From NCBI GenBank assembly GCA_902518715.1, contig CABYHU010000003.1, forward strand, positions 1-54,984: a DNA stretch of 54,984 bases, written 5' to 3'. This document shows positions 18,717 to 49,962 of the stretch, piece by piece. Positions within the stretch are counted from its first letter, which is position 1, and each line of letters begins with the position of its first letter. Source of the DNA: an uncultured SAR86 cluster bacterium. Its GTDB lineage: Bacteria > Pseudomonadota > Gammaproteobacteria > Magnimaribacterales > D2472. The position numbers and the translations under genes were made by a program. The notes under the pieces are model-generated. The model saw only the letters and a program-made list of their open reading frames with translations, did not search any database and was not told where the DNA came from.

Positions 18717-20279
18717 CTAATTCTTTATTTTAGTTACAACCTCAATTTCTCCCTCAAACTCATCTAAAAAGTCTTTAATTTCAGAATCACTTGAGAGTTC
18801 TTTTTTTGTTTTTTCTATATCTTTAATTTTATTTTCTTCATTGATTTTATTTGGTGAAGAAGAGGAAATGCCCTCTTCAAGGCAAGTTTCAATGTTACCA
18901 AATTTATCTTTAATTTTTTCTTCAAATTCACTAATAATTTTTTCAGGAATATCAAGCTGATCTTTTGATCCGCATAAGAATATCTTTTGATCATTAAATC
19001 TTACAAATGAAAGATTCCCAAAATAATTCTTTGCAAAAGATGATAGTTGCATATCGTTAAATAAAGCAGGCCAAGACGAGGAGTTTATTCCATGACTCTC
19101 TTGTGCAACTTCTTCATTTGTTTGAGGCTTTTCTTTTTTTACAGTCTTTATTTGGGCTTTATTAGCCTTTTTTTTTTGAGTTTTGGGTTCACCTGTATTC
19201 ATATTTTGAACAGGCTGAAAGGCTAACATTCTCAATAAACACATCTCTACTGCCTCTCTTGGTGATGGATGGGTGTGAATCTTTTGAAAAGAATTCAGGC
19301 CAATTTCATATATAAGCTGGCAATACTGTTCATCCATTTTAGAGGCTATGTTGGCAATGGGTTCTTTATTTGAGTCTTCGAGAACTTGGTGCAAAGAAAT
19401 TTCATGAATATTTGAAATTAAATCTTTTAAAAGTGCTTCATAATCTGGATTGAGTTTTTCAATATCATTTAATGTTTTAAATGCATCTTCCTTTCTTCCA
19501 TCAGTAATAAAATCAAGTAACTCATGTATCAGGCTGTCATCAATAGTACCTAAAAGTTTTTTTACATCATCAGCAACAAGCTTTCCGTTACCATGAGCAA
19601 TAGCTTGATCAAGCAAAGTTAAACCATCTCTGACAGATCCTTCAGCGGACTTTGCAATCAAAGATAAAGATTCATCATCTGATTTGATTCCTTCTTTTTC
19701 ACAAATCTTTTTGAAATGGACTTGAAGCTCGTTTCTTGAAACAGTTTTAAGATTTAGTTGAAGGCATCTAGAAATTACTGTTTTAGGAACTTTTTCAGGA
19801 TCCGTCGTAGCCATTAGAAAAATGACATGACTTGGTGGCTCCTCCAATGTTTTTAAAAGAGCATTAAAACTACCTTTAGACAACATATGAACCTCATCGA
19901 TTAAAAAGATTTTAAATCTTGAAACGCTCGGAGATGTATGAACAGATGACAGAAGTTCTCTCATATGCTCTACTCCAGTTCTTGAGGCTGCATCTATTTC
20001 TAGGAAATCAATACTTTTTCCTTCTTGAATAGATATAGATGACTCACATTTATTACATGGCTGTGAAGTTGGAGAATCTGATGACATACAATTTAGGCAC
20101 TTTGCTAGAAGTCTTGCAATTGTTGTCTTGCCAACCCCTCTAGTTCCACTAAAAAGGAAAGCTTGATGCACTCGTTCTTGCTCAATACTGTTCTTAATTA
20201 CTTGAACAACATGGTCTTGACCAATGACTTCATCAAAAGAATTGGGTCTATATTTTCTTGCAAGAACTTGATAAGACAT
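18717..20279 (-). CDS. dnaX: DNA polymerase III subunit tau (gamma by probable frameshift)
   Basis: DnaX is the motor of the clamp loader. From ATG 20279 (preferred over a TTG three codons earlier) the 520-residue tau has Walker A GTRGVGKT at 45-52, zinc cysteines 61, 64, 75 and 78, Walker B IDEVHMLS, the SRC arginine finger in TVISRCLQ and domain III ending near EMCLLRMLAF. After about residue 367 comes a charged linker and a tau-specific C-terminus, shorter than in E. coli (643). At codons 368-371 lies a run of ten A bases with flanking signals (see the separate entry), so a gamma product of 372 residues is likely. recR follows after 2 bases. Confidence 0.96.
   Translation of the reverse strand: MSYQVLARKYRPNSFDEVIGQDHVVQVIKNSIEQERVHQAFLFSGTRGVGKTTIARLLAKCLNCMSSDSPTSQPCNKCESSISIQEGKSIDFLEIDAASRTGVEHMRELLSSVHTSPSVSRFKIFLIDEVHMLSKGSFNALLKTLEEPPSHVIFLMATTDPEKVPKTVISRCLQLNLKTVSRNELQVHFKKICEKEGIKSDDESLSLIAKSAEGSVRDGLTLLDQAIAHGNGKLVADDVKKLLGTIDDSLIHELLDFITDGRKEDAFKTLNDIEKLNPDYEALLKDLISNIHEISLHQVLEDSNKEPIANIASKMDEQYCQLIYEIGLNSFQKIHTHPSPREAVEMCLLRMLAFQPVQNMNTGEPKTQKKKANKAQIKTVKKEKPQTNEEVAQESHGINSSSWPALFNDMQLSSFAKNYFGNLSFVRFNDQKIFLCGSKDQLDIPEKIISEFEEKIKDKFGNIETCLEEGISSSSPNKINEENKIKDIEKTKKELSSDSEIKDFLDEFEGEIEVVTKIKN
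19155..19194 (-). promoter_or_regulatory. Candidate -1 frameshift/slippage signal in dnaX
   Basis: Minus strand, in order: an SD-like AGGTGA (19189-19194), 11 bases, a run of ten A (19168-19177), then the hairpin GGCTAATAAAGCC (19155-19167; 4-bp stem, 5-base loop). In frame the run is CAA AAA AAA AAG. A -1 shift reads AAA GGC TAA and stops at once, yielding a 372-residue product. The same three elements drive gamma synthesis in E. coli dnaX; a bare A run does so by transcript slippage in Thermus. Confidence 0.65.
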
Positions 20280-48768: not shown

Positions 48769-48846
48769 AAGTTAATTTATATATTTTTTTAAAAGTAATA
48801 TAATTTATTAGCTTTGTAAAAGTATATTTTAACTGAAAAAAAAATT

Positions 48847-49962
48847 ATGAATCTAGATTTCTCAGACGACCAAAAACTTCTTCAAGAAGAAGCTAAAAAA
48901 TTTTTAACTAAAGAAGATGCTCTAAAAATAAATAGAGCGGTTATGGATAGCGAAAAAACTTATGACCAAGACCTTTGGAATAAGATTGTAGAGCTTGGAT
49001 GGACAGGTATTAGAATACCCGAAGAGTATCAAGGGTTGGGGCTTTCTCATTTAGAGTTATGCGTTATTGCTGAAGAGCTAGGAAGACAGCTTGCTCCAGT
49101 ACCCTTCTCCTCCTCAGTATATTTGTTTACTGAAACCTTAATTGAATTTGGAAGTGAGGAGCAAAAACATGCAATCCTTCCAAAATTAGTAACAGGAGAC
49201 GTGATTGGAACTCTTGCAATTGCTGAAACAAATTCAGCTCCTACCAAAAGCAATATTTCCGTGGAACTTAAAGATGGAAAACTTTCAGGAACTAAGATTG
49301 CTGTCCCTGATGCAGAAGTAGCTACTCATGCAGTTGTGGTAGCAAAAAATGGTGATAGTGTCTCTTTATGTGTTGCAGATCTGAATTCAGATGATGTTGA
49401 TATTACAGTACAAAGAAATATCGATGAAAGCAGAGGCTATTATTCAGTTTCTTTTGATGGCGCTAACGCTGAAGTAGTTGGCGATGAGGAATCAGGTTGG
49501 TCAAACCTTGAAAAAATTATGGACCATGCCGCGGTTTTATTTTCCTTTGAACAAATAGGCGGTGCTCAAGCAAGTCTAGATATGGCAAATACATATGCAA
49601 AAGAAAGATATGCATTTGGAAGACCAATAGGATCTTTCCAATCTATGAAACATAAATTAGCTGACATGTATGTAGCTTTAACTCTAGCTAAATCGAACTC
49701 TTTTTATGGAGCATGGGCTCTATCCTCAAATGCAGCTGAACTTCCAACGGCTGCTGCTACGGCCAGAGTTTCTGCAACCAAAGCTTTTCAGCTATGTTCT
49801 CAAGAAAATATTCAAACGCATGGCGGTAACGGGTTTACATGGGAATATGACTGTCATATGTTTTATAAAAGATCAAAAGTGCTTTCACTTAACTTGGGTT
49901 CGCTGCCATCATGGCGCGAAAAACTTATTAAAAGCTTAGAACAAGCAAATATTAAACTATAG
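48847..49962 (+). CDS. Acyl-CoA dehydrogenase, likely subunit of a heteromer
   Basis: A 371-residue flavoenzyme-family protein. Seen: NLDFSDDQKLLQEEAKKFL, YQGLGLSHLELCVIAEELGRQLAPVP, GTLAIAE, the FAD-binding RYAFGRPIGSFQSMKHKLADM and QTHGGNGFTWEYDCH. The stretch where most members have YEGT reads LNLGS, so the usual catalytic Glu is absent. Together with the next gene (8-base gap) it forms a FadE-type pair like the alpha2beta2 acyl-CoA dehydrogenases of steroid side-chain breakdown. Confidence 0.88.
   Translation: MNLDFSDDQKLLQEEAKKFLTKEDALKINRAVMDSEKTYDQDLWNKIVELGWTGIRIPEEYQGLGLSHLELCVIAEELGRQLAPVPFSSSVYLFTETLIEFGSEEQKHAILPKLVTGDVIGTLAIAETNSAPTKSNISVELKDGKLSGTKIAVPDAEVATHAVVVAKNGDSVSLCVADLNSDDVDITVQRNIDESRGYYSVSFDGANAEVVGDEESGWSNLEKIMDHAAVLFSFEQIGGAQASLDMANTYAKERYAFGRPIGSFQSMKHKLADMYVALTLAKSNSFYGAWALSSNAAELPTAAATARVSATKAFQLCSQENIQTHGGNGFTWEYDCHMFYKRSKVLSLNLGSLPSWREKLIKSLEQANIKL

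What the first reader, a model, noticed from the sequence alone, without database searches (positions are those of the whole stretch)
19155..19194. Programmed frameshift or slippage site in dnaX that would make a gamma subunit
Ten A bases (codons 368-371: CAA AAA AAA AAG) are preceded 11 bases upstream by AGGTGA and followed directly by the hairpin GGCTAATAAAGCC. A -1 move reads AAA GGC TAA and terminates, so the product keeps residues 1-371 plus one Gly, ending just after domain III. The +1 frame also stops within seven codons. E. coli uses the same trio (SD-like site, A AAA AAG, hairpin) with an immediate stop; Thermus uses a long A run and transcript slippage. The signal was found by reading, and a strongly AT-rich genome can make A runs by chance.
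Basis: partly seen in the sequence, partly recalled or inferred. Interest (0 to 1): 0.8.

Follow-up and report, generated by a model that had tools for sequence, protein, structure and literature searches.

The report
Poly-A slippage site in SAR86 dnaX
In the ocean bacterium SAR86 and nearly all the relatives examined, the gene for a DNA-copying clamp loader keeps a run of nine to eleven A's that most likely lets the cell make a short and a long protein from one gene, as shown before in Thermus.

Summary
dnaX (window 18717-20279, minus strand, 520 aa) has an A10 run at 19168-19177, just after domain III, with a stop close by in both shifted frames. The host is a SAR86-cluster bacterium. An A9-A11 run at the matching place was found in 146 of 148 SAR86 dnaX genes tested (21 genera, 4 families), in all three codon phases. 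Synonymous-codon permutation expects 68.6 of 148; 2 of 1355 other stretches of the same genes hold such a run. Both shifted frames stop within 8 codons in 135 of 144 genes, against 39% at control positions. In ten genus genomes dnaX holds one of only 2-6 A/T runs of ten or more. The Shine-Dalgarno-like site and hairpin are not conserved, and in-frame A_AAA_AAG is present in 13 of 147. This favours RNA-polymerase slippage (Thermus dnaX type) over the E. coli type of ribosomal frameshift. No RNA or protein was examined, and A_AAA_AAA is in frame in 147 of 147. A clade-wide new member of a known kind; similar runs occur in 17 of 97 dnaX loci outside SAR86.

The parts
18717..20279 (-). dnaX, clamp-loader tau subunit (520 aa from ATG at 20279)
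   Evidence: TIGR02397 418.8 bits, cut-off 250; PF13177, PF22608, PF12169; coordinates
19215..19574 (-). domain III (PF12169), which ends shortly before the run
   Evidence: residues 239-358 in TTG numbering, converted to window coordinates by hand
19168..19177 (-). A10 slippage run (CAA AAA AAA AAG)
   Evidence: A9-A11 in 146 of 148 SAR86 dnaX genes
19162..19164 (-). TAA met after one extra A (equivalent to the -1 frame); product 372 aa
   Evidence: coordinates worked out by hand
19148..19150 (-). TAA met after one A fewer (equivalent to the +1 frame); product 376 aa
   Evidence: coordinates worked out by hand
18720..19167 (-). tau-only region, under purifying selection (dN/dS 0.075-0.14 in 8 genus comparisons)
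   Evidence: measured on about 122 codons near the C-terminus
19189..19194 (-). SD-like AGGTGA; probably not functional
   Evidence: not conserved as such in the genus; pairing energy not distinct from in-gene background
19155..19167 (-). 4-bp hairpin abutting the run; probably not functional
   Evidence: not conserved in the genus; mean fold z-score of the 50 nt downstream 0.07 over 20 genera

Best explanation
The A10 run is a transcriptional slippage site. RNA polymerase slips on it and makes mRNAs with varied numbers of A. Transcripts with 10 or 10+3n A's give full-length tau; the others hit a stop within a few codons in either shifted frame and give gamma, which keeps clamp-loader domains I-III but lacks the tau-specific C-terminus. 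Shown: the run, the stops and their conservation. Inferred: that slippage happens, that it is transcriptional, and that gamma is made and used.
For: Run of 9-11 A in 146 of 148 genes in 4 families. Phase differs: 0 in f3, 1 in most of f1 and in 15 of 22 f2, 2 in g12 and f4; single members of g1 (G006) and g8 (G065) keep A10 in another phase. Synonymous permutation, allowing a run anywhere in the 43-codon stretch, expects 68.6 of 148 genes; one-per-genus weighting expects 9.4 of 21 against 20 seen. In the 144 intact genes the site holds 40 A9, 102 A10, 2 A11; elsewhere in them runs of eight or more are 74 A8 and 11 A9, none longer. In 108 phase-1 genes the fourth codon begins with A in 107 while its residue is N, K, S, T or I; its serines are AGY in 8 of 8 against 27% elsewhere. 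Both shifted frames stop within 8 codons in 135 of 144 against 39% at control positions. Nine A's is a length at which bacterial slippage is reported (passages of PMC5009743, and PMC1088944). dnaX holds one of 2-6 distinct A/T runs of ten or more in each of 10 genus genomes. Hairpin and SD-like site not conserved. Of 26 non-SAR86 loci with GC under 0.40 only 2 have A9+ in the linker.
Against: No RNA-seq, ribosome profiling or protein data. A_AAA_AAA is in frame in 147 of 147 genes, so ribosomal slippage is possible in each. G162, the only genome read of genus g20, has no run. The peptide alone makes a run likely in about half the genes, and the genes share descent, so the counts are not independent trials. 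Some AT-rich outgroups do without the run, so gamma is not needed by all.
Confidence: 0.72

Rival explanations
1. Ribosomal -1 frameshifting on A_AAA_AAA or A_AAA_AAG makes gamma, as in E. coli, without transcript heterogeneity.
For: In-frame A_AAA_AAA in 147 of 147 and A_AAA_AAG in 13 of 147, among them 8 of 10 genus members. The extra-A/-1 frame stop is near. The window gene has an SD-like site and a short hairpin, and SD pairing energies are below the in-gene mean in several genera (g1 -2.8 against -2.1, g4 -4.5 against -2.0, g5 -3.6 against -1.5, g18 -4.5 against -2.4, g21 -4.3 against -2.0).
Against: A7-A8 would suffice for the heptamer, yet the run is at least 9 in each phase with one exception, the broken G056. 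Over 20 genera the mean SD energy equals the in-gene mean (-1.88 against -1.83; E. coli -7.4) and the fold z-score is 0.07, although that z-score has little power since E. coli's own is -0.22. The one-A-fewer/+1 frame stop is also enriched, which -1 frameshifting does not need. A_AAA_AAA is reported less shift-prone than A_AAA_AAG in E. coli (PMC5009743 passages).
Confidence: 0.18
2. The run is a chance result of AT-rich composition and a lysine-rich linker, and only tau is made.
For: Window GC is 34%; AAA is 77% of lysine codons in these genes; permutation gives a run in about 46% of genes from the peptide and codon usage alone. One genus (g20) lacks the run.
Against: 146 seen against 68.6 expected; scarcity of long runs elsewhere in the genes and genomes; AGY serines; paired stops. 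A10 also in dnaX genes of GC 0.58-0.68.
Confidence: 0.06
3. The run is a replication-slippage contingency locus: DNA-level length changes switch dnaX between tau and gamma states.
For: G005 has A11 and G056 A8 and both frames break there.
Against: 144 of the 147 genes with a run have a long intact frame, as expected for an essential tau; the two exceptions may be homopolymer errors of assembly. Enriched stops in both frames are not needed for it.
Confidence: 0.04

Closest known systems
Thermus thermophilus dnaX, transcriptional slippage on A9 (passages of PMC1088944 and PMC5009743)
   Same: single tau ORF, sense-strand A run, stops near in both other frames
   Different: SAR86 mostly A10; run directly after domain III, about 70% through the gene rather than seven-eighths; slippage not measured here
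Two-ORF dnaX genes (17 fs-genes, 12 with poly-A, nine of them A10; passages of PMC3711429)
   Same: poly-A of the same length; transcriptional slippage proposed there
   Different: there gamma is in frame and tau needs a shift; in SAR86 tau is in frame (G005 with A11 resembles the two-ORF form)
E. coli dnaX programmed -1 ribosomal frameshift
   Same: gives gamma from within the tau frame; A_AAA_AAG is present in 8 of 10 genus g1 members
   Different: no conserved SD-like site or spaced stable hairpin; the E. coli 50 nt downstream fold at -19.7 kcal/mol against a g1 mean of -2.2
Blochmannia dnaX with poly-A frameshifts (passages of PMC3017870)
   Same: AT-rich gammaproteobacterial dnaX with a poly-A tract where slippage is proposed
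   Different: there the tract is broken, lies downstream of the gamma site, and slippage would restore tau

Membership tests
Thermus-type dnaX transcriptional slippage | run of at least 9 A in the sense strand | tested here: met
   A10 in the window; 146 of 148 SAR86 genes
Thermus-type dnaX transcriptional slippage | stop codons close by in both non-zero frames | tested here: met
   372- and 376-residue products; within 8 codons in 135 of 144
Thermus-type dnaX transcriptional slippage | heterogeneous A number in mRNA | not testable with these tools
   no RNA reads available
Thermus-type dnaX transcriptional slippage | both tau and gamma proteins made | not testable with these tools
   no protein data
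E. coli-type dnaX -1 frameshift | in-frame A_AAA_AAG | tested here: inconclusive
   present in the window gene, but in 13 of 147 genes
E. coli-type dnaX -1 frameshift | upstream SD-like stimulator | tested here: inconclusive
   AGGTGA is in the window gene alone of 10 genus members; pairing energies in the genus run from +0.5 to -4.3 (window -3.8), 36% of in-gene stretches pair as well on average, E. coli -7.4
E. coli-type dnaX -1 frameshift | stable downstream stem-loop a few nt after the heptamer | tested here: not met
   the 4-bp hairpin abuts the run with no spacer and is not conserved; E. coli spacing is recalled
Clamp-loader DnaX (TIGR02397) | score over curated cut-off | tested here: met
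   418.8 bits against 250

The most novel reading that the evidence does not exclude
Slippage-based gamma production is a common and repeatedly rebuilt feature of bacterial dnaX rather than a Thermus oddity, and in SAR86 the run length can cross between a tau-in-frame form (A10) and a gamma-in-frame form (A11, as in G005), with slippage making the missing partner either way.
Probability: 0.2. Interest if true: 0.65.

Novelty: new member of a known kind. Interest (0 to 1): 0.5.

Why it matters
How widely gamma is made outside E. coli and Thermus is unsettled; a 2012 review says most other bacteria keep no frameshift signature in dnaX and may not make gamma (PMC3290774 passages). A slippage site kept across a marine order (SAR86 is abundant and mostly uncultured; general knowledge), in a genus whose genomes hold only 2-6 A/T runs of ten or more, is strong indirect evidence that gamma is selected for. 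It can be tested in existing marine metatranscriptomes by counting A's. It also warns annotators that dnaX genes with an odd A number are not necessarily pseudogenes.

Tried and rejected
E. coli trio: rejected as the main mechanism because the hairpin and the exact SD-like site vary between near relatives; weak SD-like pairing does persist in several genera and is reported among the rivals. AT-bias chance: rejected. Fold z-scores of the downstream 50 nt gave nothing; the E. coli control itself has z = -0.22, so the z-score is a weak test. Two of my own measures were set aside on re-check: the count of AAA lysines inside the run (329 AAA and 13 AAG) is circular, because an AAG ends a run by definition; and the first permutation (63.8 of 147, 8.9 of 20 genera) looked only where the run had been found, so the fairer one is used instead. 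Papers: SAR86 with dnaX gave none in the held library; SAR86 with slippage gave 3 and SAR86 with frameshift 10, seen as listings only. The primary Thermus paper is not held, so it is cited through passages of other papers.

Rows dropped: of 107 family genomes 103 matched and 96 were read; 6 gave only weak hits (G019-G021, G062, G091, G097) and G096 was cut by a contig end. Of 96 further order genomes 89 matched and 53 were read; the other 36 fell below the end of the listing and are the weaker matches. G043, with several breaks in the frame, was left out of the tests, giving 148. G005, G039 and G056 were left out of the stop test, giving 144. Genus g16 was not read. One search counted G056 as A9 from another run; its homologous run is A8. 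Outgroup: 100 loci tried (61 named, 39 from unnamed class genomes, picked from the best-matching rows), 97 readable; L191 is cut just after the run and L235 has a short frame.

Full report
What is there. The window lies in a 1.06 Mb, 24-contig genome, 85% complete, GC 34% in the window. Named relatives at 84-97% dnaX identity carry SAR86-cluster titles, such as AG-390-J09, except one titled only Pseudomonadota, so the host is SAR86. dnaX is at 18717-20279 on the minus strand, followed by ORFs that look like recR and dcd (those two names are from reading the proteins, not from a search). The protein is a DnaX clamp loader by TIGR02397 and Pfam. Domain III ends at residue 358 in the TTG numbering, and the first codon of the run is 13 codons later.

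Long runs are rare here: two A/T runs of ten in the whole assembly, and in the window three A9 matches against 15.4 expected. In ten genomes of the genus there are 2-6 distinct A/T runs of ten or more each, and dnaX holds one in 10 of 10.

Conservation. In the genus, 9 of 10 have A10 and G005 has A11. In the family 96 dnaX genes were read from 107 genomes; in the rest of the order 53 from 96. Leaving out one wrecked gene (G043), 146 of 148 have a run of 9 to 11; the exceptions are G162 without a run and G056 with A8 and a broken frame. The run is in phase 1 in 93 of 95 f1 and 15 of 22 f2 genes, phase 2 in the 7 genes of genus g12 and in 8 of 8 f4, phase 0 in 22 of 22 f3 genes with a run, and differs within g1 (G006) and g8 (G065). 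If genera and families are monophyletic this means at least five phase changes with the length kept (inference).

Selection at the nucleotide level. Permuting synonymous codons within each gene, and allowing a run anywhere in the 43-codon stretch after domain III, gives an expected 68.6 of 148 genes with a run of nine or more; 146 have one. Weighted by genus the expectation is 9.4 of 21 and 20 was seen. So the peptide and codon usage alone would give a run in nearly half the genes; the excess is the evidence. In the 144 intact genes the site holds 40 A9, 102 A10 and 2 A11, while elsewhere in the same genes runs of eight or more are 74 A8 and 11 A9 with none longer, and 2 of 1355 other stretches of equal size hold an A9+ run. 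In 108 phase-1 genes the fourth codon starts with A in 107 while coding N, K, S, T or I; its eight serines are all AGY against 27% elsewhere. The residue varies but the base is kept. A further count, AAA against AAG inside the run, is circular and is not used.

Stops. After a one-base gain or loss both frames stop within 8 codons of the run in 135 of 144 genes, against 39% for matched positions downstream in the same genes. Enrichment in both frames is what transcript slippage needs. The tau-only part is under purifying selection, dN/dS 0.075-0.14 in eight comparisons, including G005 read in its downstream frame, so tau is used too.

Mechanism. In E. coli the signal is SD-like site, A_AAA_AAG and stem-loop. 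In SAR86 the exact AGGTGA is found only in the window genome among ten genus members, though weaker pairing remains (window -3.8 kcal/mol; G002 -4.2 and G009 -4.3; E. coli -7.4); a 4-5 bp abutting hairpin is present only in G000 and G002. Over 20 genera the downstream fold z-score averages 0.07 and the mean SD energy equals that of in-gene stretches, though g4, g5, g18 and g21 pair about 2 kcal/mol better than background. In-frame A_AAA_AAG is in 13 of 147, 8 of them in this genus. In contrast a length of at least nine is kept in each phase, apart from G056, and nine is a length at which bacterial RNA polymerases are reported to slip. I therefore favour transcriptional slippage, with ribosomal slippage on A_AAA_AAA, in frame in 147 of 147, as the live rival or a partner.

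Outside SAR86. Of 97 readable dnaX loci from other bacteria, 17 have an A9-A10 run in codons 330-420. Of those with GC under 0.40, 2 of 26 do; of those with GC of 0.55 or more, 6 of 40 do, from records titled Gammaproteobacteria, Planctomycetota or Planctomycetia, and Acidobacteria. These come from best-match lists, not a random sample. They argue that such sites arose or persisted against base composition; many of them end in AAG, so either mechanism could act there.

Relation to print. Thermus A9 slippage, E. coli frameshifting and a two-ORF dnaX type with A10 are known (passages seen). One review (passages) holds that most other bacteria lack such signatures. No paper in the held library mentions both SAR86 and dnaX; papers outside that library were not searched. 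This is a new, clade-wide member of a known kind.

Noticed in passing
L012 (G005, AG-447-G17; L173): dnaX has A11, so the DNA encodes a gamma-length frame and tau lies in the shifted frame; the C-terminal part still looks selected. Real variant or assembly error is open.
   Followed up: partly
L094 (G056): run is A8 where its relative G079 has A9, and the dnaX frame breaks there.
   Followed up: partly
L124 (G162): the only genome of genus g20, a larger one (1.8 Mb), has no A run in the dnaX linker; an apparent loss.
   Followed up: partly
L165 1098-1107 (G000 contig C2:37097-37106): the only other A10 run of the genome, early in an ORF that may be a glycosyltransferase (from reading, not searched); possible slippage or phase-variable site.
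   Followed up: no
L097 (G039): dnaX frame breaks about ten codons after the start of an intact A10 run, in a two-contig genome.
   Followed up: no
L189, L193, L194, L221, L229, L230: A10 runs in dnaX genes of GC 0.58-0.68 (Gammaproteobacteria, Planctomycetes and Acidobacteria records), five of six with stops within ten codons in both shifted frames.
   Followed up: partly
window 48836-48844 (+): the only other A9 run of the window, just upstream of an ORF at 48847 that looks like an acyl-CoA dehydrogenase (from reading, not searched).
   Followed up: no
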